This document shows positions 42,926-55,617 of a stretch of DNA of 64,000 bases, in pieces. This DNA comes from Chloroflexi bacterium HGW-Chloroflexi-2. Lineage in GTDB: Bacteria; Chloroflexota; Anaerolineae; Anaerolineales; Anaerolineaceae. Position 1 is the stretch's first letter. The number at the start of each line of letters is the position of its first letter. Location: NCBI GenBank assembly GCA_002840735.1, contig PHBY01000015.1:1-64000 (forward strand), in the 5' to 3' direction. The notes beneath the pieces are model-generated. The model saw only the letters and a program-made list of their open reading frames with translations. It did no database searches and was not told the DNA's origin. A program made the translations under genes and the position numbers.

Positions 42926-43543
42926 ATGAAATTAAGAGAATTCGAATCAAAAATAAAAAATTATCCATTATTTAATCTTAATGATATAAGGAAAATTGAT
43001 CCTGGATTTCACAGGCAACAATTAATTTATTGGAGAAATCAGAGATACATAAAACCATTGGCAGGTGGTTATTATATGTTAGCGGAAATGCAAGTTAATG
43101 AACCTATTTTGTTCATGCTTGCAAATAAAATTTACGAACCATCCTATGTCAGTTTAGAATCTGCATTAGCTTATTATCAAGTCATTCCAGAATCTGTATT
43201 CGGAGTCACCAGTATCAGTTCAAGAAAAACTACCCAATTCGAAAGTGATTTTGGGATTATTCAATATAGGTCAATTAAACCTGATTATTTGTTTGGTTAT
43301 CAAATAATTGAAACATCTTCCAGGATAAAATATAAAATTGCCAGATTGGAAAAGGCAATTTTGGATTATCTCTATCTTCATTCAGAAATTGAATCGACTG
43401 ATGACTTTGAACTTCTTCGATGGAATATAGAATCGGTAACAATGATTCTGGAAAATAAAAATTTTCTCAGTTATTTACATCAATTTGGGAAACTCGCATT
43501 GAACAGGAGAGTTAGATTCTTATTGGAGTATATTCATGCTTGA
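42926..43543 (+). CDS. AbiEi-family antitoxin/transcriptional regulator
   Basis: Protein of 205 residues. A winged-helix-type N-terminus (LNDIRKIDPGFHRQQLIYW, then IKPLAGGYYML) is followed by the AbiEi C-terminal domain (VSLESALAYYQVIPESVFG, then RKTTQFESDFGIIQY). It should neutralise the downstream nucleotidyltransferase toxin and repress its own operon. It overlaps the toxin gene by eight bases. Confidence 0.88.
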   Translation: MKLREFESKIKNYPLFNLNDIRKIDPGFHRQQLIYWRNQRYIKPLAGGYYMLAEMQVNEPILFMLANKIYEPSYVSLESALAYYQVIPESVFGVTSISSRKTTQFESDFGIIQYRSIKPDYLFGYQIIETSSRIKYKIARLEKAILDYLYLHSEIESTDDFELLRWNIESVTMILENKNFLSYLHQFGKLALNRRVRFLLEYIHA

Positions 43544-44315
43544 TTTACAACAAATAAAAGAACAATATACTGATGATCTGCAAAGCTTCGAGAAATCGAT
43601 CCTGAATGAATACTTACAATATAAAATTTTGCAGGCAATTTTTGAGAGCAAGTACGCAAGTAAACTCTCTTTTTTAGGAGGAACTGCGTTAAGAATTATT
43701 TATGGTAACAACCGTTTTTCTGAAGATATCAATCTTGATAATTTTGGAATGAGTTGGGATTTGTTTGCAGAATTAGTTGAGAGAGTGAAAAAGCTCTTAG
43801 AATTAGAAGGATTTCATGTCCAGGTCAACAGTGTTTCTAAAGGTGCCTTTCATTGTTATTTGCGATTTCCAGAATTATTGTATCAGCAAGGTTTATCACC
43901 TCTTCACCAGGAAAAAATAATGATACAAGTGGACACTATATCTCAAGGTTATGATTACCAACCTGAGATAAAAATCCTCAACAAATTTGATGTATTTACT
44001 GAAGTTAGAGTCACGCCATTAAATTTGTTACTTTCCCAAAAAATCTTCACAGCTGTGAATCGAAAACGAGCAAAAGGAAGAGATTTCTACGATATCACTT
44101 TTTTATTGGGTAAAACAAAACCAGATCTAGCATTTCTTGAGAAGAAAATGGGAATTAAAGACCCTGAAAAATTGAGGATGGATTTCTTTGAAAGAATCGC
44201 AAATTATAACTTTAAAGCGCTTGCCGAAGATGTAACTCCGTTTGTCATCAAGCAGGAACAGATTAATCGGGTATTAAAATTCAGAGAATTTTGGAAACAG
44301 GTGGAATTAACCTAA
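43536..44315 (+). CDS. AbiEii-family nucleotidyltransferase toxin
   Basis: Protein of 259 residues of the AbiEii/AbiGii family, whose members add nucleotides to RNA targets such as tRNA acceptor stems. The core is LSFLGGTALRIIYG followed by NRFSEDINLDN. The canonical motif is SEDLDF; here the second Asp of the DxD is Asn, which could weaken metal binding. A later conserved Lys/Asp motif RAKGRDFYDITFLLG is intact. It is co-transcribed with its antitoxin. Confidence 0.88.
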   Translation: MLDLQQIKEQYTDDLQSFEKSILNEYLQYKILQAIFESKYASKLSFLGGTALRIIYGNNRFSEDINLDNFGMSWDLFAELVERVKKLLELEGFHVQVNSVSKGAFHCYLRFPELLYQQGLSPLHQEKIMIQVDTISQGYDYQPEIKILNKFDVFTEVRVTPLNLLLSQKIFTAVNRKRAKGRDFYDITFLLGKTKPDLAFLEKKMGIKDPEKLRMDFFERIANYNFKALAEDVTPFVIKQEQINRVLKFREFWKQVELT

Positions 44316-46626: not shown

Positions 46627-47364
46627 TCACAAAATTTGTTGAATCCAATCAGAATGAAAATCATCCTCTCGATTGTTGTGTTTGATCGCCAGGGTTACCA
46701 GGGAATGATTTGATTTACGCCAGAATAATTTCAGATTCTTCCCCTCAGGAGGACATTGCAGTATTTCTAAAGGCTTCCATTCCTCAGGACTTGAGAGAGG
46801 CGGAGGTTTGAGAGCGATCTGGCGGGTATCAATGCGTAGACCAATCTGCAGTGCTTTCACGATTGCCTCCCTACCGCTCCATAATAGTGATGCTGTCAGC
46901 GCCTGTTCTCCAATAGGGAGCGCAAGCACCATCCTGGCTTCTGGTTCGGTGAAATAATCTTCCACAAAACCACGCGATTTGGCTTCAATCTCTTCCAGAT
47001 CGATCCCAATCGAGATCTCAGGATCGAAACAGAAGGCTGAAATGGCTTTCTCAGCGCGGTGACTGATCGATAATGATCCCTCCATGCGCTGATTATTCCA
47101 CATCACAAAGGGTGCGCCGCTGTCTTCATTATGGATCGAGAGTTCATGGAATGGAAGGGTGTCAGAATCAGTTAATAGATTATTGAGTAGATTTTTAGCA
47201 ACCCAACGCCCCAGTAACCATTCCTGTTGGCGTTTTGGAAAGCGAAATTGCCGGTATCGATTTGATTCCTGAGGGGATAACCAATCCAAATCCTCAGGAA
47301 TCGAAGCAAACTTTTTTAAGCACCAAAATACAGGATAATCTGATTTCATGGTATTGTGGGGCAT
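46627..47364 (-). CDS. 4'-phosphopantetheinyl transferase, Sfp/HetI type
   Basis: Transfers phosphopantetheine from CoA to acyl carrier domains. 245 residues. Motifs: SLSISHRAEKAISAF, ISIGIDLEEIEAKS with the Mg-binding Asp and Glu, and LLWSGREAIVKALQIG, a variant of the WSxKEAxxKA motif with Arg in place of Lys. It follows the synthase gene on the same strand by 33 bases and should activate its three carrier domains. Start 47364 has no clear ribosome site; Met at 47349 is an alternative. Confidence 0.88.
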   Translation of the reverse strand: MPHNTMKSDYPVFWCLKKFASIPEDLDWLSPQESNRYRQFRFPKRQQEWLLGRWVAKNLLNNLLTDSDTLPFHELSIHNEDSGAPFVMWNNQRMEGSLSISHRAEKAISAFCFDPEISIGIDLEEIEAKSRGFVEDYFTEPEARMVLALPIGEQALTASLLWSGREAIVKALQIGLRIDTRQIALKPPPLSSPEEWKPLEILQCPPEGKNLKLFWRKSNHSLVTLAIKHNNREDDFHSDWIQQIL

Positions 47365-47397: not shown

Positions 47398-50300
47398 TTA
47401 CTTCATTAAAGTTTCAACAGGCGTTAGCAATTCCTGCTCGACGCTATAAGGCATTGGTGAGGTGCGATACTTCTCAATTTCAAGATAGACCTGACCTTTG
47501 CTATCGACCACACGGGCATCAAAATATTGTTGACCATCGCTGGCGGTGACGGGTTGGACTTCGGCATAGATCGGCAATCCATTGACCTTGCTCTCATACA
47601 AACGCAATGCGCCAATCGATTTTGGCAGGCTGAGGGTTCCAGCTTTTCCAATGTCCCATACACCAGCAGTTTGTAAACACAATTCAACCAAAATCGGCAC
47701 GCTGATCATGCTCTTTTCCTGTTGGGACAATGGAGGGATCTGGCGATTTAGTTTTCCTAAAACCACATTTCCATTTCTTTGTACCCCTTCCAGAACCTGG
47801 AAAGCCGGACCGTGGAAATATAGTTTGTAGATGTCCTTTGCCAGAAGTGTGTAAGCATCATTCCAATGTGGTGCCTTTCCATCGCTTTTCACCTGCGGCA
47901 GATTGGCAGGCACCAGATACACCTGACCGGAGAAATGCAGAAGATGATCTGTGCGTTGATGTACGCGTGCGAGATCAGACTCAAGGGTAACGTATGCAAC
48001 CAGACCTGCTTCTTCCCGAACCGCCTGTGCTTTCCAGGTGATCGGACGGGCTTTATCCCGGTAGAATTTGAAAGGGGTCAAGAACTGAATATTCGATAGT
48101 CTTTCAACCCGGAAACCACTTTTAGAAGATCCGATCCTGGAGGCAACATGCTGAGCAGCAATTGAAAATCCTTCGATGCCCATAACACCGGGTAAGAGGG
48201 GAATACCATTCAGGCTATGATCTTTGAGGAAGGCTTCCTGGTTGGGATCCAATTCTGCTTCCAACAATATCCCATCCTGCAGGCTGACACCACTGGCGCG
48301 GTTGAGCATAACATGAATCGGTTGTCCACTGGTGAGGGCAATATTTGCTTTTTCAACGTCCAGACCACCATCAGGGTCTTTTTGTGTTTCCAATAATCCC
48401 AGAGAACCAGCCAGAACCACTTCACCGCGTGATCCAGCTTCCAATTCCTGCCTGACACAAGCAGAAGCCTGCTGGGGGTGGATCATGTCAATCCCGGCTC
48501 GTTTCATTAATTCCGGGATATGGCCACGGCTTGCCATTCCTACTTCTGCCCAGGCTCCCCAATCGATGGTCACGATATGAATTTCAGGGTATTGTTGGCG
48601 GAAAGCGGATGTAAGCCGGCACAGGAGATCATTGGCCGCGCTGTAATCGGTTTGCCCGGCGTTTCCAAAACGTCCAGCAACGGAGCTGAAATTGACGATC
48701 GCTTTTGGCAATTGTTTTTCATTTTCAAGTGCTTTGAAAAGATTGAAGAAACCAGTGGCTTTCACGTTGATAATCTGCCTGAACTCCTCTTCGCTTTTCG
48801 AGTCCAGTTTGCGGCTCTTCTCCACACCGGCAGCGTGGATCAAGACATCCACATGACCTTCTTTCTGGATGATTTGCTTCACCACTTCGTTCACTGCGTT
48901 TTGATCGCTGACATCACAGGGAAGGTAAGTCACCTGTCCACCGGTCTTGCGGATCGCGTCCATGGTTTTTAATGTAGCTGCAGCGCGTTCCAATCCTGCG
49001 ATTTCCTGATTGATGATAGCAGGAGTCGCTTTTTGACCGGATTTGGATAACCGCTGCAGGATCGTAAATTTGAGCTGTTCGGGGTCTTTGGCCAACAATT
49101 CCAATTCGGGGTGATTTTTCTCCGGCAGGTGGGTGCGCGCCAGTAAATAGAAATGTCCCTGGGTATGCTGCGCCAGATCTTCAATGATCGGAGCGGTGAT
49201 CCCACCGGTGCCACCACTAACCAGAAAAACTGCACCTTGAGGAATTGGATTCGTTTGGTCTGTTTCGATTTCAGAATCCTTTAATACTAATGTGAAACGT
49301 TGATCCCCTTCCCAGCCCACTTCCATGACAGCCGGATCAAAGAGCGTTTCTTCGACCAACTTATTTGCCAGGCTGGCAGGTTTTTCATTGTTCGAAAAAT
49401 CGACAACTTTTACAAAAATGTTATTACGCTCGCGAGCGATGGCTTTGGCAAAGCCAGCGGCTGCCCCGGATAATGGATTGTTGGCGCCATTGGCAGATAA
49501 ACCATGTAAACCGTCCATGCGCGTGGCTACAACCAGAAATTTGATCTCAGGCAATTGTCTGATGGCTGCGACCAGATTGTAAAATTTGTGTTCCAACATG
49601 CTTTGCCAGTCCTCAACATCCATTTTTGATATCAGGGTTTCCTTGTTTAAGGTGGGCAAAAAGTACAATCCATCAATAGAGCCTGATTCTGCCCATTGTT
49701 TGATTTGATTGATTAATTCTTCCTGGTTGGAGGATTGAATTGACAAAACTTCAACCTGATTGCCAGCTAGTTTCTTTTCCAGGGCTGGCGCAACCTTGCC
49801 ACTGTCTTTGATAACAACCACCCTGGAACCCTTCTCCAATACGATTTCTGTAGGTGTGCATAAATCAATACGGGGACGTAAAACTGCAACCGGTACCCTC
49901 CGTCGGATGCTGGCGGTTTCTTCAGATTCGATAGAAATTTCAGGCTGATCCGGGAGTTTCTCTTCCACGGGCTCAATCGATTTTTGTTGCGCCTGGGCAT
50001 CCAGTACAAACTGAACAACTTTTTGCAAGGTGTTGTACTCTGATAAACGTAAATCTTCACGGCGAGGAATGCCAAAATTCTCGCGAATACTGGCAAATAA
50101 CTCCGCCTGCTTGACGGTATCAATGCCCAAATCTGCTTCCAGATCGAGCTCCATATCCAGCATTTCCACCGGATAACCTGTTTTTTCACTGACTTTTTCG
50201 AGAACTACACGGGTTACTTCATCATTTTGGAGGATGCTAACAGGTTCTACTTCCGAAACCTGTATGGGTTGTGACACTGGTTGAGGTTCAGGTGCTTTTG

Positions 50301-53300
50301 CTTCAGGGATGATTTTCACCAGCGGTGTAACTGGTGCAGGAGCATCACTTGCCCAACCCTGAGGTCCCTGACCAAATTGCCAGTTGGAGACCATCGGTTT
50401 TACCTTTGGAGCACCTTCATGTTTGACACGTAAGTTATGCTGGACAACTTCCAGTTCTGGTTGTGGATAACCGGACACAGAAGCCAGCCATTGTTGGTAT
50501 TGTCCCTGATTGACACGTTCGCCCACACCAACTATTTTTCTGGTTAAGGTCATGGCGATTTGTGAACCAAAACCTGCCCCCAGACGTAGTGAGAATTGCA
50601 CCGGGTAATTACCACCTTTGGAAAGGTTGAGATCTCCCAGTTCCGGGTCTGGTTCAAAGTCTTTGTCATAATGCGCGATAGGTGGCACCATACCATATTC
50701 CAGCGCTTTGACAGCCATCACATCCTCTATACCGACCCCCATGGTATGACCAGTGAAGCCTTTGGTGTTGGTAATGATGACTTTGTTGGCCTGATCCCCA
50801 AAGGTTTTCCGCAAGGCATGAATTTCAGCGGCCGCGCTGCCACCACGTGCCGGGGTATAGGTCTCATGCGAGAAAAACGCGGTTCGAGCAGCGATTTCAT
50901 GCCGGTTGATGCCGAAACGTTGTTCTGCCTGGGCAATCACGCGCTGCATGACGTCACTGACATGGGCTACATCCAGGCGGGTACCATGGAAAGCTGAATT
51001 GGCAATCTGGCTGGAGAGTAGCTCGCAGATACCCCGCATACCACGTTCACGCACTGCGTCTTCGGCTTCCACCACCAGGGCAGCGGCGCCCATCCCCATG
51101 ATCAAACCATTACGGCGGCGGTCGAAGGGTAAAGCTGCCATACGCAAGTTTCCTTCTATCGTGGCTGCACCACTGGCCATCAATCCGGTGCCGACCCAGT
51201 TGACCAGATTGCCATCGGTGACATCATCTCCGGCAATCACGATCACTCTACGGCAGCGTCCGGCACGAATCCAATCTTCAGCAATCGCAACTGCGTGGGT
51301 GGTAGTGGCGCAGGCTGCATTGACATAGGTGTTGGGTCCACGGGCACCGATGTGTTCGGCAAATTGGGAATGACCCATTGCCAGTACCCGAAAGACAAAA
51401 TGACGGTTGAAATGGTAGTCGTTGGCTTGCAATTGGGCTTCTACTTGCTCTAATTTATGATGGAGTGTCTCAGACACCTTGCCACTGCTGCCATTCAACA
51501 TCTGGATAAAATCCAGTAATTGTTGTTTTTGCGACAATAAATTCTGGAAGGTGTAATAATGGTCGGCTTCTTCCGACATACGTTCCAGTCCTGGGAAGGC
51601 TGATCCGAAGATGACACCGGTTTCATCCTGCATGGCTTCCGGTAACATCCAGCGATTGGGTAGCAGGGTGCCTTTGCTGGTGGTACGGTAATTCATTACC
51701 AAAGGAATCCCTGCATCCCGTAAGGCATCAATCCCGGCGGCGATGGCCAGTTGGGTGCTGATATCTGTGGCATCTACACGATCTTCCGGAATCCCAAACT
51801 CATTGGCTGGATCAAAATTTCCACGTTGTCCGGCTAATTTCACGGTCGCTTCCAGATCATCAATGTTGACCATCATCGCGCCTGCTTCATGTTTGACCAG
51901 GCGGGTAACACGTTTATCGAGCATATTCTCGCGTGTTTTTTGTGGAAAAGACTCGATTAACACTTCGCCTTTGAGCAGTCTCTGGACATTATCTTCAGCA
52001 AATACCAGACCATTCTTACCTGGCAATCCCAATCCAGCACCGCTGATGACGACTGAACCCGTGAGCGGAACTCGGCCATTCGAGATGGCTGGCTGCGGGA
52101 CTGCAACGATTTCGGGTGAATTCTCATAATGAGCTTTTTCATTGCTCGCCATGGCTGGTAAACCGGCGGCGAATAAAGCGCACAGCGCTTCATTAAAGCT
52201 TGGTAATGCTCCCTTACGTGGGTGATTGGTGGCCAGGAGTGTTACTTCAGGATTGTCTTTGAAGATATCGCTGGTGAGCGCATTCAAGACGCGTTTCGGA
52301 CCGACTTCCACAAAAATTCGGGCACCGTTTTCGTACAGTTTTCTGGCTCCTTTAATGAATTGCACCGGGGATGCAACCTGTTCTGCCAGTAAATCCAGGA
52401 TTTCTTCTCGTCCAGATGGATACCAATCTCCGGTTACATTGGCAGCAACGGGTACTTTAGGAGCCTGCAGATCCATGCGTTCGATGACCTTGCGAAGTGG
52501 TTGACTGGCTGGCGCGACAATTTTGGTGTGAAAAGCATGCGAAACCGGTATTTTGACTGCCTGGAAATTGGCTGCCATGAATGCCTGGATGGCAAGATCG
52601 ACACCTTTGGTGGAACCGGCGATGACTGACTGCAATGGACTGTTGATATTTGCCAGTACGACATATTCATCAATGCTGCCAAGAATGCGTTCCACTTCCT
52701 TGAGGGGGGCTGAGACAGCTGCCATACAGCCATTATCCTCCATGGCGACCTTGACCATTTCACGACCACGGGCACTGACCACTTCCAGCGCTTCATCAAA
52801 TCGTAAGACGCCAGCGGCTACCAGGGCTGCATATTCACCCAGACTGTGTCCGATGACCATATCAGGTTTAAATCCGTATTTTTCCAGAAGGCGTAACAGC
52901 GCCACGTTGGCAGTCAACACAGCTGGTTGGGTGATAGTAGTATCTTTTAGTTTCTGTTCTGCTTCCTTGAGGCTGGCTTCATCTCCTTCGGCATAGATGT
53001 AATGAGTGAGGGGTTTCCCCAGTAACGGTTCCATGACCCGGTCTGCTTCGACAAAGACTGCATCCACCACCGGTTCAATGGCGCGTAATTCTCGCAGCAT
53101 ATTCACATATTGTGAACCCTGTCCGGGAAAAAGGAAGGCTACCTTACCGGGATCCCCGCTGCCACGATAGACTCCCTGGGCAGTCATGGCTTGCCACATG
53201 GAGGGATTATCCGAGTCAAAAGCTTTTAATGCCTTTTCTGCTCGTTTGATGAATTCATCCTGATTGCCATAATCGATTACCAGACGTTCTGATAAAGATA

Positions 53301-55617
53301 GTTGATCATGTTTTGGTAACTGAGAAGGGGGCAGAGAACCTTGCTGAGCCAGAGATAATGAATTTTGTAGTTTTTCTTTTAATTCAGCAGTTGTGTTTGC
53401 GGATAGAAAATGCAAACCTCTGAAATGTTCTGCTTGAACTGGAGAAGGGGTTGTAGGCTGTGAGGGGGCTTCGACAGTGGACGAGGTTCCTGGTTGTCCA
53501 CCAGCATTTTCTTTGAAGAAGTTGATGACTTTTGCCAGCGTGTTGTAATCTGATAAACGCAGATCTTCCCGACGGGGGACATTATAATGTGCGCGGATGG
53601 TGGCAAACAGTTCAGCTTGTTTGACGGTATCGACCCCCAGATCAGCTTCCAGATCCAATTCCAGATCAAGCATCTCTGCCGGATAACCGGTTTTTTCTGC
53701 TACCTGTTGGATCACAAATTGGGTGATCTCCTGATCGGATGCCTTTTCACCCGTTTCAATGGTTGCCTCGGTTGGTGCTGTCTGCCCGGAGGTTGCTGGG
53801 TGCAGGGAGGTTTCACTCTGAATCGATGGGTCCGATAAAGATGCATCCGAACCAGATGCATTATCCATCACAAACCCAATCACTTTCTCAATGGTGTTGT
53901 AATCGGATAAGCGTAAATCTTCGCGGCGAGGAATCCCGAAATGCTCGCGGATGGTGCGGAAAAGCTCGGCCTGTTTAACGGTATCGACACCCAGATCGGC
54001 TTCCAGATCCAACTCCACATCCAGCATTTCAGTAGGATAACCCGTTTTTTCACTCACAGCTGCCAATACGAATTCTTTCACCGCTTGATTTTCAACACGC
54101 TGGGTTGAAGGGGCACCAACGGTTGCAGAGGTGACAACCTGATTGACAGGATTAGCGATGACAGCCGGGATACTGTAGACTGGTTGGCGCTCTTCATGCA
54201 AACCTGGCACGTATTCTTCCAGAACAACATGGAAATTTGTACCTCCGAACCCAAAAGAACTTACGGCTGCCCGCCGAATTTCGCTGGCTGGTTTTTCCCA
54301 CGGTTGCGATTGAGTATTTACGAAGAAGGGCATATGTTCAAAATCAATGTTTGGGTTGGGTTTGTGAAAGTTAACCGAGGGGGGGAGCGTTTTCTGATCC
54401 AGAGCAAAAGCAACTTTCGCTAGACCGGCAGCCCCAGCAGCACTTTTGAGATGTCCAATGTTGGATTTTACTGAACCTAAAGCGATGGTTCGAACCGGGA
54501 TACCGAACTTCCCGAATATTTCATTCAGGCTATTGACCTCGACCACATCTCCAACTCGGGTGGAGGTACCATGACCTTCGATTAACCCAGCGCTGGCAGG
54601 TGTGACTCCTGCATTTTTCCAGGCACGCTCTATGGCTCTTTGTTGTCCCAAAGGATTGGGTGCGGTGATGCCCTTACCTTTGCCATCCGAACTGGAACCA
54701 ATTCCGCGGACGACAGCATAGATCTTATCCCCTTCGCGTTCGGCATCTGTCAGGCGTTTGAGCATAAAGATGGCAGTACCTTCGCCCATCACAAAGCCAT
54801 TGGCACCATCCGCATAAGGACGTGATCCATCAGCGCTGAGGGCTCCAATTTTAGAGAATTTGACATAGGATTCGGGACCCATGTTGCGATCCACACCGCC
54901 CACTAAAACAGTGTCAAATTGATAATCATTCAGCCCCTGAACGGCAGCCTGTAGGGCAGCCAAGGACGAGGCACAAGCGGCATCTGTGACGAAATTGGGT
55001 CCACTGAAATTGAACACATTGGCAATTCTGCCAGCAATAATGTTGGATAATTCACCGGACATGGTGTCTTCGGTGATATCCGGAATTTGTTGGCGAATAT
55101 TATTCTGAAAACTATCAATCAACTGTTGTTGAACTGCAGCAGGCAGGTTTTTAAAAGTATCGGATTGCTCCAATGCCTGGACATATTCAGGCAGGCGAAT
55201 TCGCATGGTGGAAGTATAATGACGTTCACCAGCGTTTGAGTTGCCGAGAATCACAGCCATTCTTTCCGGATCAATCGTCCGCTCTGGATAGCCATAATCG
55301 CTGAGCGCCTGGTGGCTGGCTGCGAGGCCCCATTGTTGTGTGAAATCCATTTGTGCTAAAACGGTAGGTGGAATGGGAATCCGCATCTTCATAGGGTTGA
55401 ATTCAAAATTTGTTACCCAGGATCCAATTTTGCTGTAGGTCTTGTCCGGTACCTTGGGATCACTATGGTAATAGAGATTGGTATCCCAACGATCTGATGG
55501 AACATCTTTAATCGAATAATGCCCTTTGAGGATATTTTCCCAAAAGAGTTTTGCATTGGGAGCATCTGGCATGATCGCTCCGATCCCCACGATTGCTACT
55601 GGTTTTTGTTCTGACAT
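47398..55617 (-). CDS. PfaA-like multidomain polyketide/PUFA-type synthase
   Basis: Giant synthase of 2739 residues. Domain order: KS1 (about 5-470; Cys in TDAACASSLAALQ, His in EGHGTSTRVGD and NIGHLKSAAG), two ACPs (about 515-590 and 635-710), AT (about 825-1130; FLFPGQGSQYVNM, VIGHSLGEYAALV), KS2 (about 1210-1700; Cys in VNAACATTTHAV, His in KGFTGHTMGVG), a third ACP (about 1785-1860), KR (about 2130-2400; LVSGGTGGITAP, then TDYSAANDLL) and a C-terminal hot-dog DH (DHSLNGIPLLPG). All three ACPs carry LGVDTVKQ or LGIDTVKQ, with Thr where Ser is expected. No thioesterase or PfaB/PfaC genes are present; PfaD and the PPTase complete the set. The start follows GGAGGT by eight bases. The product is unknown: a long-chain polyene, fatty acid or glycolipid chain. 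Confidence 0.9.
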   Translation of the reverse strand: MSEQKPVAIVGIGAIMPDAPNAKLFWENILKGHYSIKDVPSDRWDTNLYYHSDPKVPDKTYSKIGSWVTNFEFNPMKMRIPIPPTVLAQMDFTQQWGLAASHQALSDYGYPERTIDPERMAVILGNSNAGERHYTSTMRIRLPEYVQALEQSDTFKNLPAAVQQQLIDSFQNNIRQQIPDITEDTMSGELSNIIAGRIANVFNFSGPNFVTDAACASSLAALQAAVQGLNDYQFDTVLVGGVDRNMGPESYVKFSKIGALSADGSRPYADGANGFVMGEGTAIFMLKRLTDAEREGDKIYAVVRGIGSSSDGKGKGITAPNPLGQQRAIERAWKNAGVTPASAGLIEGHGTSTRVGDVVEVNSLNEIFGKFGIPVRTIALGSVKSNIGHLKSAAGAAGLAKVAFALDQKTLPPSVNFHKPNPNIDFEHMPFFVNTQSQPWEKPASEIRRAAVSSFGFGGTNFHVVLEEYVPGLHEERQPVYSIPAVIANPVNQVVTSATVGAPSTQRVENQAVKEFVLAAVSEKTGYPTEMLDVELDLEADLGVDTVKQAELFRTIREHFGIPRREDLRLSDYNTIEKVIGFVMDNASGSDASLSDPSIQSETSLHPATSGQTAPTEATIETGEKASDQEITQFVIQQVAEKTGYPAEMLDLELDLEADLGVDTVKQAELFATIRAHYNVPRREDLRLSDYNTLAKVINFFKENAGGQPGTSSTVEAPSQPTTPSPVQAEHFRGLHFLSANTTAELKEKLQNSLSLAQQGSLPPSQLPKHDQLSLSERLVIDYGNQDEFIKRAEKALKAFDSDNPSMWQAMTAQGVYRGSGDPGKVAFLFPGQGSQYVNMLRELRAIEPVVDAVFVEADRVMEPLLGKPLTHYIYAEGDEASLKEAEQKLKDTTITQPAVLTANVALLRLLEKYGFKPDMVIGHSLGEYAALVAAGVLRFDEALEVVSARGREMVKVAMEDNGCMAAVSAPLKEVERILGSIDEYVVLANINSPLQSVIAGSTKGVDLAIQAFMAANFQAVKIPVSHAFHTKIVAPASQPLRKVIERMDLQAPKVPVAANVTGDWYPSGREEILDLLAEQVASPVQFIKGARKLYENGARIFVEVGPKRVLNALTSDIFKDNPEVTLLATNHPRKGALPSFNEALCALFAAGLPAMASNEKAHYENSPEIVAVPQPAISNGRVPLTGSVVISGAGLGLPGKNGLVFAEDNVQRLLKGEVLIESFPQKTRENMLDKRVTRLVKHEAGAMMVNIDDLEATVKLAGQRGNFDPANEFGIPEDRVDATDISTQLAIAAGIDALRDAGIPLVMNYRTTSKGTLLPNRWMLPEAMQDETGVIFGSAFPGLERMSEEADHYYTFQNLLSQKQQLLDFIQMLNGSSGKVSETLHHKLEQVEAQLQANDYHFNRHFVFRVLAMGHSQFAEHIGARGPNTYVNAACATTTHAVAIAEDWIRAGRCRRVIVIAGDDVTDGNLVNWVGTGLMASGAATIEGNLRMAALPFDRRRNGLIMGMGAAALVVEAEDAVRERGMRGICELLSSQIANSAFHGTRLDVAHVSDVMQRVIAQAEQRFGINRHEIAARTAFFSHETYTPARGGSAAAEIHALRKTFGDQANKVIITNTKGFTGHTMGVGIEDVMAVKALEYGMVPPIAHYDKDFEPDPELGDLNLSKGGNYPVQFSLRLGAGFGSQIAMTLTRKIVGVGERVNQGQYQQWLASVSGYPQPELEVVQHNLRVKHEGAPKVKPMVSNWQFGQGPQGWASDAPAPVTPLVKIIPEAKAPEPQPVSQPIQVSEVEPVSILQNDEVTRVVLEKVSEKTGYPVEMLDMELDLEADLGIDTVKQAELFASIRENFGIPRREDLRLSEYNTLQKVVQFVLDAQAQQKSIEPVEEKLPDQPEISIESEETASIRRRVPVAVLRPRIDLCTPTEIVLEKGSRVVVIKDSGKVAPALEKKLAGNQVEVLSIQSSNQEELINQIKQWAESGSIDGLYFLPTLNKETLISKMDVEDWQSMLEHKFYNLVAAIRQLPEIKFLVVATRMDGLHGLSANGANNPLSGAAAGFAKAIARERNNIFVKVVDFSNNEKPASLANKLVEETLFDPAVMEVGWEGDQRFTLVLKDSEIETDQTNPIPQGAVFLVSGGTGGITAPIIEDLAQHTQGHFYLLARTHLPEKNHPELELLAKDPEQLKFTILQRLSKSGQKATPAIINQEIAGLERAAATLKTMDAIRKTGGQVTYLPCDVSDQNAVNEVVKQIIQKEGHVDVLIHAAGVEKSRKLDSKSEEEFRQIINVKATGFFNLFKALENEKQLPKAIVNFSSVAGRFGNAGQTDYSAANDLLCRLTSAFRQQYPEIHIVTIDWGAWAEVGMASRGHIPELMKRAGIDMIHPQQASACVRQELEAGSRGEVVLAGSLGLLETQKDPDGGLDVEKANIALTSGQPIHVMLNRASGVSLQDGILLEAELDPNQEAFLKDHSLNGIPLLPGVMGIEGFSIAAQHVASRIGSSKSGFRVERLSNIQFLTPFKFYRDKARPITWKAQAVREEAGLVAYVTLESDLARVHQRTDHLLHFSGQVYLVPANLPQVKSDGKAPHWNDAYTLLAKDIYKLYFHGPAFQVLEGVQRNGNVVLGKLNRQIPPLSQQEKSMISVPILVELCLQTAGVWDIGKAGTLSLPKSIGALRLYESKVNGLPIYAEVQPVTASDGQQYFDARVVDSKGQVYLEIEKYRTSPMPYSVEQELLTPVETLMK

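What the first reader, a model, noticed from the sequence alone, without database searches (positions are those of the whole stretch)
47398..55617. Three carrier domains with Thr in place of the phosphopantetheine Ser
All ACP domains read LGVDTVKQ or LGIDTVKQ, where PfaA-type ACPs have DS. If the prosthetic group is attached, it would be on Thr, which is unusual for PPTases; the neighbouring PPTase has a variant WSGREAIVKA motif and may be adapted to it. I believe similar DT carriers occur in other bacteria but cannot confirm here.
Basis: partly seen in the sequence, partly recalled or inferred. Interest (0 to 1): 0.68.

Follow-up and report, generated by a model that had tools for sequence, protein, structure and literature searches.

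The report
Lipid synthases with threonine-type carrier domains
A large bacterial lipid-making enzyme and its relatives carry threonine at the spot where carrier proteins otherwise have the serine that holds their working arm, and they travel with their own arm-attaching enzyme, so threonine probably holds the arm here, which can be tested directly.

Summary
The 2,739-aa synthase (window 47398-55617, minus strand) has three carrier domains, all with Thr (T546, T664, T1834) at the attachment position. The family is known: it matches the "Type R" secondary lipid synthases of Shulse & Allen 2011 (PMC3098273), whose main text holds neither "serine" nor "threonine".

New here: in 80 loci fetched by a ketosynthase domain only, 218 of 218 carriers aligned at that column have Thr. 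With later loci, 345 Thr carriers lie in 115 frames, against 59 Ser carriers in 22 frames of other, mostly Pfa-like synthases; no frame mixes them. A ketosynthase tree needs one Thr/Ser change. The other catalytic residues read are intact. A PPTase is fused (13) or downstream (73) in 86 of 89 loci that have sequence left to show it. In E. coli, ACP S36T cannot be modified (PMC3340395).

Best explanation: phosphopantetheine sits on Thr, placed by the linked PPTase. No modified protein has been seen.

The parts
47398..55617 (-). Type R-like iterative lipid synthase, 2,739 aa: KS1-ACP-ACP-AT-KS2-ACP-KR-DH
   Evidence: ORF; Pfam; 1007.9 bits to TIGR02813 PfaA, just under its 1010.1 cut-off
54190..55605 (-). 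KS1, Cys215-His349-His389 present
53848..54102 (-). carrier domain 1, attachment position Thr546 (53980-53982)
53494..53748 (-). carrier domain 2, attachment position Thr664 (53626-53628)
52198..53145 (-). acyltransferase domain, Ser925 present
50308..52050 (-). second ketosynthase domain (the 'CLF' position), still with Cys1436-His1584-His1624
49984..50235 (-). carrier domain 3, attachment position Thr1834 (50116-50118); predicted carrier fold, Thr is residue 40 of the model and the first of the helix 40-54
48418..49650 (-). ketoreductase region, Tyr2325 present
47401..48360 (-). dehydratase region, His2467 present
46627..47364 (-). Sfp-type phosphopantetheinyl transferase (PPTase), 245 aa, 33 bases after the synthase ORF on the same strand
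   Evidence: Pfam ACPS; model pLDDT 93.8, best PDB match Sfp-carrier complex 4mrt Z 21.1; catalytic residues
44966..46609 (+). PfaD-type enoyl reductase, tail to tail with the PPTase; probably supplies enoyl reduction in trans
   Evidence: TIGR02814 659.4 bits against a cut-off of 449.25

Best explanation
This is a working, self-contained, iterative lipid synthase of the known Type R kind whose carrier domains are phosphopantetheinylated on Thr instead of Ser. The linked Sfp-type PPTase transfers the 4'-phosphopantetheine of CoA to the hydroxyl of the Thr at the start of a long helix of each carrier (inferred). The AT loads malonyl units, the KS domains elongate, KR and DH process the beta carbon and, in this lineage, the PfaD protein reduces the enoyl group (domain roles inferred from their families). 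Thr is an inherited and strictly kept trait of the family, not a decayed carrier (shown by conservation). The product is unknown, probably a long acyl chain.
For: Thr in 218 of 218 carriers aligned at the site, in loci chosen by KS2 alone, and in 345 carriers of 115 frames after two duplicate loci were dropped, against Ser in 59 of 59 carriers of 22 other frames, none mixed; loci added after one search were picked by a carrier pattern or a PPTase place. The Thr codon uses all four ACN forms (183 ACG, 118 ACC, 25 ACT, 18 ACA of 344), so the residue is what is kept, while 20 of 35 Ser/Thr columns of the KS1 domain of the same proteins do swap Ser and Thr. The other two conserved Thr of the carrier occur in Ser-type carriers too (59 of 59, and 46 Thr with 7 Ser), so only this Thr is group-specific; no Ser or Cys is invariant, the nearest being a Ser at -24 in 150 of 219. 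Control: 42 of 42 other carriers read in genomes that hold a Thr synthase have Ser. KS1, AT, KS2, KR and DH catalytic residues are intact in all Thr-synthase rows read (98, 104, 108, 87 and 83, window included). PPTase fused in 13 and downstream on the same strand in 73 of 109 Thr loci; of the 23 without, 20 end within 2 bases of the synthase frame; ACPS confirmed by Pfam in both of 2 fused proteins scanned. PPTase catalytic residues kept in 85 of 85 (Asp107, Glu127, Trp147, Glu151, Lys155 in Sfp numbering) and 84 of 85 (His90, Glu109). Of 17 Chloroflexota genomes with only Thr-type pattern hits, the window's included, I gave 8: all 8 hold just two PPTases, one beside the synthase; the window's own genome shows the same.
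Against: No modified protein has been seen. Known Ser to Thr changes kill canonical carriers: E. coli ACP S36T cannot be modified by 4'-PP (PMC3340395), and spinach ACP-I S38T lost function (as cited in PMC9310384). No PPTase residue that would make room for the extra methyl was identified; the group-specific PPTase positions found (Arg45 in 85 of 85 against 2 of 12, for example) are not tied to the active site by any test here. Two genomes (G222, G260) hold both carrier types but only the Thr-linked PPTase and one other; G380 too holds both types and two PPTases, so strict specificity is doubtful there. Two loci (L136, L174) have 8.4 and 7.7 kb downstream without a PPTase; the genome of L136 (G380) has one on another small contig that falls among the Thr-linked ones. 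The genomes also hold stand-alone Ser carriers that the linked PPTase might serve.
Confidence: 0.78

Rival explanations
1. The carriers are modified, but on a different residue; Thr at the canonical site is structural.
For: Two other Thr are almost invariant in the carriers, at -21 and near the last helix, and a Ser at -24 is frequent (150 of 219).
Against: Both Thr are found in Ser-type carriers as well (59 of 59, and 46 Thr with 7 Ser), so they are fold residues. No Ser or Cys is invariant. Thr opens the helix at residue 40 of the model, where the attachment Ser of carriers lies (N-terminus of helix II, PMC7949117, passage).
Confidence: 0.05
2. The carriers are not phosphopantetheinylated. 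They are scaffolds or substrate-binding modules, and the synthase works on CoA or free intermediates; the linked PPTase serves other, Ser-type carriers.
For: Ser to Thr abolishes modification in E. coli ACP (PMC3340395). Stand-alone Ser carriers exist in these genomes.
Against: A catalytically intact PPTase is linked or fused in 86 of 89 informative loci, in 13 of them within the same reading frame; carriers are kept in mostly three or more copies (73 of 84 loci with a PPTase have 3 to 6) with an invariant D-T pair; every other active site read is intact.
Confidence: 0.08
3. Ordinary replacement: the Thr-linked PPTase is a broad enzyme that modifies Ser and Thr alike, and Thr is only a fixed historical accident without functional gain.
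For: G222 and G260 hold Ser-type synthases and only the Thr-linked PPTase plus one other. The PPTase has a normal catalytic core.
Against: Thr never reverts to Ser in 345 carriers on a clade whose KS1 tree is 23 substitutions per site long, although Ser is one base change away. Partner residues change with it (V+1, Q+3, A+4, R+11 against mostly I, R, V, Q).
Confidence: 0.25

Closest known systems
Type R secondary lipid synthase (Shulse & Allen 2011, PMC3098273; abstract, section 8 and found passages read)
   Same: One long PfaA-like protein with KS, MAT, second KS ('CLF'), several ACPs and KR, followed by a PPTase gene; found in Chloroflexi and Acidobacteria; an ACC gene lies between synthase and PPTase in Koribacter, and a carboxylase does so in L008 here (Pfam); L175 has a 1,794-aa frame there (not scanned).
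   Different: In the window two carriers lie before the AT and one after KS2, a PfaD gene is attached, and the 'CLF' keeps the Cys-His-His of an active ketosynthase. The main text of that paper holds neither 'threonine' nor 'serine'.
Pfa / PUFA synthases (PfaA-D, Ser carriers)
   Same: Tandem carriers, KS, AT and KR domains, PfaD partner, own PPTase in many.
   Different: Carriers read LGIDSIKR, Ser in 59 of 59 here; different domain order; other side of one fully supported branch of the KS1 tree.
Sfp-type PPTases (Sfp, AASDHPPT, PptT)
   Same: Predicted fold (best Z 21.1 to 4mrt) and catalytic residues.
   Different: Linked to Thr carriers; 9 of 12 Ser-type PPTases, Sfp among them, stand apart in the tree, 3 lie beside the Thr-linked ones unresolved.
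E. coli ACP S36T and spinach ACP-I S38T mutants
   Same: Thr at the attachment site.
   Different: Laboratory mutants reported as not modified or non-functional; here Thr is the natural and only state seen.

Membership tests
Type R secondary lipid synthase (Shulse & Allen 2011) | Single PfaA-like polypeptide with KS, MAT, second KS/CLF, ACPs and KR | tested here: met
Type R secondary lipid synthase (Shulse & Allen 2011) | Domain order KS-MAT-CLF-ACP(3-6)-KR | tested here: inconclusive
   Relatives such as L138 and L142 show it; the window has two of its three ACPs between KS1 and AT
Type R secondary lipid synthase (Shulse & Allen 2011) | PPTase gene downstream | tested here: met
   46627-47364, same strand
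Type R secondary lipid synthase (Shulse & Allen 2011) | PPTase motifs P1a x(G/D)xP and P1b' hShxH | tested here: met
   SGAP and LSISH in the window PPTase (sequence; motifs)
Type R secondary lipid synthase (Shulse & Allen 2011) | Common KS clade with the named members (Roseiflexus, Koribacter, Solibacter, Elusimicrobium) | tested here: inconclusive
   A Roseiflexus-labelled MAG (L081) has four Thr carriers and a 'Candidatus Sulfotelmatobacter' MAG (L090) four; the strains named in the paper were not fetched by name
PUFA (PfaA) synthase TIGR02813 | Score over the curated cut-off of 1010.1 bits | tested here: not met
   1007.9 bits
PUFA (PfaA) synthase TIGR02813 | Carriers with the attachment Ser (LGIDSIKR) | tested here: not met
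   Thr in all three
Carrier domain PF00550 | Score over Pfam's cut-off | tested here: met
   All three over cut-off in the genome search; 39 of 39 members of A2 match at E 0.001 or better
Carrier domain PF00550 | Phosphopantetheine on the attachment residue | not testable with these tools
   needs mass spectrometry
Sfp-type PPTase | Pfam ACPS over cut-off, Sfp-like fold, catalytic Asp/Glu/Lys residues | tested here: met

The most novel reading that the evidence does not exclude
Phosphopantetheinyl-threonine is the normal, obligate form of the carrier in a widespread synthase family, and its linked or fused PPTase lineage accepts Thr where E. coli's own machinery cannot, perhaps keeping these carriers apart from the cell's Ser carriers as an insulated carrier/PPTase pair.
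Probability: 0.65. Interest if true: 0.85.

Novelty: new variant of a known kind. Interest (0 to 1): 0.73.

Why it matters
Ser is given as the attachment residue as a matter of course (for example PMC8007912, passage), and a Ser to Thr change is used as the dead control for E. coli ACP. A natural family with Thr only, spread over several phyla and carrying its own PPTase, would add a new protein modification, show how a PPTase can change its acceptor residue, offer a carrier/PPTase pair that may be insulated from the host's, and mean that tools which look for the Ser would call these synthases inactive. It can be tested with two small proteins in a laboratory strain.

Tried and rejected
PPTase-motif adaptation (WSGREA): rejected, Arg in 2 of 85.

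Search for a phage or mobile origin: no relative in viral contigs (48 stretches matched a pattern, none confirmed).

PPTase residues that explain Thr acceptance: group-specific positions listed, but nothing shows that they touch the acceptor; the S-type set was small (11 sequences plus Sfp) and partly far related, and four of its members (L193, L194, L196, L198) were taken from genomes with Ser synthases but not seen beside one. The PPTase tree needs 2 changes of the label and has 45 open forks among 96 inner branches, so it is weaker than the KS1 tree. That one was built by the quick method, with four long Ser rows flagged.

Papers: 10 of 10 searches used. No listing pointed to natural Thr carriers; I looked into 11 papers, by abstract, passages or one section only. 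The string DTVKQ occurs only in three unrelated papers. The library is open-licence only, and figures and supplements were not seen, so this is not proof of absence in print. I recall, from no call, that the standard phosphopantetheine signature patterns demand Ser.

Control: of 46 PF00550 hits read out of 111 in ten genomes, 4 belong to a Thr synthase and the 42 others all have Ser (those that the script's pattern missed were read by eye in its output). Of 30 further search-made loci (some repeat these hits), two (L212, L217) were not read by the pattern.

Rows dropped before counts: L180 and L181 (copies of L026 and L046); 8 gapped carrier fragments; KS1 rows under 350 aligned columns. Loci L125-L199 were chosen by a carrier pattern or a PPTase place, so they do not measure frequency. 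The pattern cannot see carriers of other sequence; it also gave one DSVK hit (G054, where the carrier profile found none) and two DWVK hits (G024, G380), which I take as chance.

The list was cut off by the tool; no count of Thr against Ser hits is given for that phylum.

Full report
What was claimed and what is there. The ORF at 47398-55617 on the minus strand encodes 2,739 residues with the order KS1-ACP-ACP-AT-KS2-ACP-KR-DH. All three carriers have Thr where the phosphopantetheine Ser is expected: LGVDTVKQ, LGVDTVKQ, LGIDTVKQ. The protein scores 1007.9 bits against the PfaA model TIGR02813, just under its cut-off of 1010.1. An Sfp-type PPTase lies 33 bases downstream on the same strand and a PfaD-type reductase ends tail to tail with it. 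The genome has five PF00550 hits, these three plus two stand-alone carriers that have Ser (KADSMDQ and LIDSFS, read), and two PPTases, of which one is this.

How common it is. I searched 84,980 species genomes with the second ketosynthase domain only, so that the carrier could not bias the choice. 428 stretches encode a relative; the best 80 came back. 75 of the 80 hold a carrier; the 226 carrier rows have Thr in 218, a gap in 8 (fragments) and Ser in none. Most loci are labelled Chloroflexota or families of it, with MAGs labelled Myxococcales (L088), Archangiaceae (L082) and Candidatus Sulfotelmatobacter (L090); the actinomycete Nonomuraea gerenzanensis has the same carrier. A degenerate DNA pattern that allows Ser or Thr hit 29 of 400 Chloroflexota genomes: by my reading of the listing 24 with DTVK, 12 with DS, 7 with both. 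It hit 44 of 114 genomes in the phylum of L088 (both kinds, listing cut off) and 12 of 99 in that of L090 (8 Thr, 4 Ser).

Two clean classes. Over all long loci fetched, 351 carriers in 117 frames are Thr and 59 in 22 frames are Ser; no frame mixes them. Without two duplicate loci it is 345 in 115 frames. The neighbours change together: Thr goes with V-K-Q (V in 343 of 345, Q in 343 of 344 filled), Ser with I-K-R (59 of 59). The Ser class sits mostly in Pfa-like synthases of other domain order, the Thr class in the one-protein type with two KS domains before or among the carriers. On a KS1 tree of 98 Thr and 21 Ser rows one change of label suffices (SH-aLRT 100, quick method). The tree is unrooted, so which state came first is not shown; Thr as the derived state is my inference.

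Why Thr is probably the working residue. It is invariant although its codon drifts through ACG 183, ACC 118, ACT 25, ACA 18, while 20 of 35 Ser/Thr columns in the KS1 domain of the same proteins swap Ser and Thr. No Ser or Cys in the carrier is invariant; a Ser at -24 is found in 150 of 219. The other two conserved Thr are shared with Ser-type carriers. In ten genomes, the 42 other carriers that I read all have Ser. The other active sites are intact in all rows read: KS1 98, AT 104, KS2 108, KR 87, DH 83. The predicted carrier (pLDDT 93.3) has Thr as first residue of a long helix; best PDB match 6lvu, an acyl carrier protein, Z 13.8, rmsd 1.4 over 78 residues, a value that the tool warns can arise among helical bundles, though the list holds mostly carrier proteins.

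The PPTase link. Of 109 Thr loci (two of them duplicates), 13 have the PPTase fused in the same reading frame, 73 have one downstream on the same strand (62 within 300 bases) and 23 show none; 20 of those 23 end within 2 bases of the synthase frame, one (L049) has 745 bases left, and two (L136, L174) have over 7 kb without one. Pfam confirms the ACPS domain in both fused proteins scanned, L160 and L170. The catalytic residues are kept in 84 or 85 of 85 PPTases, and the model of the window's enzyme matches Sfp in complex with a carrier best (4mrt, Z 21.1, rmsd 2.9, 211 aligned; AASDHPPT 2cg5 is tied at 20.8). Of 17 genomes where the pattern saw only Thr carriers I tested 8: all have two PPTases, one beside the synthase; one search shows the same for the window's own. 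Against a strict pairing, G222 and G260 hold both carrier classes with no PPTase of their own for the Ser synthase.

What is known. Shulse & Allen 2011 (PMC3098273; abstract, section 8 and found passages read) defined Type R: KS-MAT-CLF-ACP(3-6)-KR with a PPTase downstream, in Koribacter, Solibacter, Elusimicrobium and Roseiflexus, with an ACC gene in between in Koribacter. L008 here shows a biotin-dependent carboxylase in that gap; L175 has a 1,794-aa frame there that was not scanned. The main text has no 'threonine' or 'serine'; figures and supplements were not seen. In E. coli, ACP S36T cannot be modified by 4'-PP and serves as negative control (PMC3340395, passages); PMC9456370 uses it as an inactive form (passages) and PMC13343975 reports that it no longer binds IscS (passages). 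Spinach ACP-I S38T lost function, as cited in PMC9310384 (passage). Ten library searches listed no report of natural Thr carriers (see tried and rejected).

Verdict. A known family with a trait that I found unremarked and that, by the biochemistry of E. coli, is surprising. The mechanism (phosphopantetheine on Thr by the linked PPTase) is inferred, not shown, and one co-expression experiment would decide it.

Noticed in passing
window 42926-44315: AbiE-like pair beside the lipid cluster: weak AbiEi antitoxin match (NCBIfam, 29 bits against a cut-off of 150; no Pfam match) followed by an AbiEii nucleotidyl transferase (PF08843, 70.7 bits), a type IV toxin-antitoxin kind.
   Followed up: partly
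L160, L162, L163, L165, L166, L168, L170, L172, L173, L182, L183, L184, L187: PPTase is a C-terminal domain in the same reading frame as the Thr carriers, in genomes of the phylum of the Myxococcales MAG L088 (Pfam check of L160 and L170).
   Followed up: yes
window 50308-52050: The domain at the chain-length-factor position keeps Cys-His-His in 108 of 108 Thr-synthase rows read, so it looks like a second active ketosynthase.
   Followed up: partly
L008 16652-22117; L175 11902-17286: A single-protein biotin-dependent carboxylase lies between synthase and PPTase in L008; a 1,794-aa frame holds the same place in L175.
   Followed up: partly
L125, L127 (G222, G260): Ser-type Pfa-like synthases in genomes whose only PPTases found are the Thr-linked one and one other: a natural test of whether the Thr-linked enzyme also takes Ser.
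   Followed up: no
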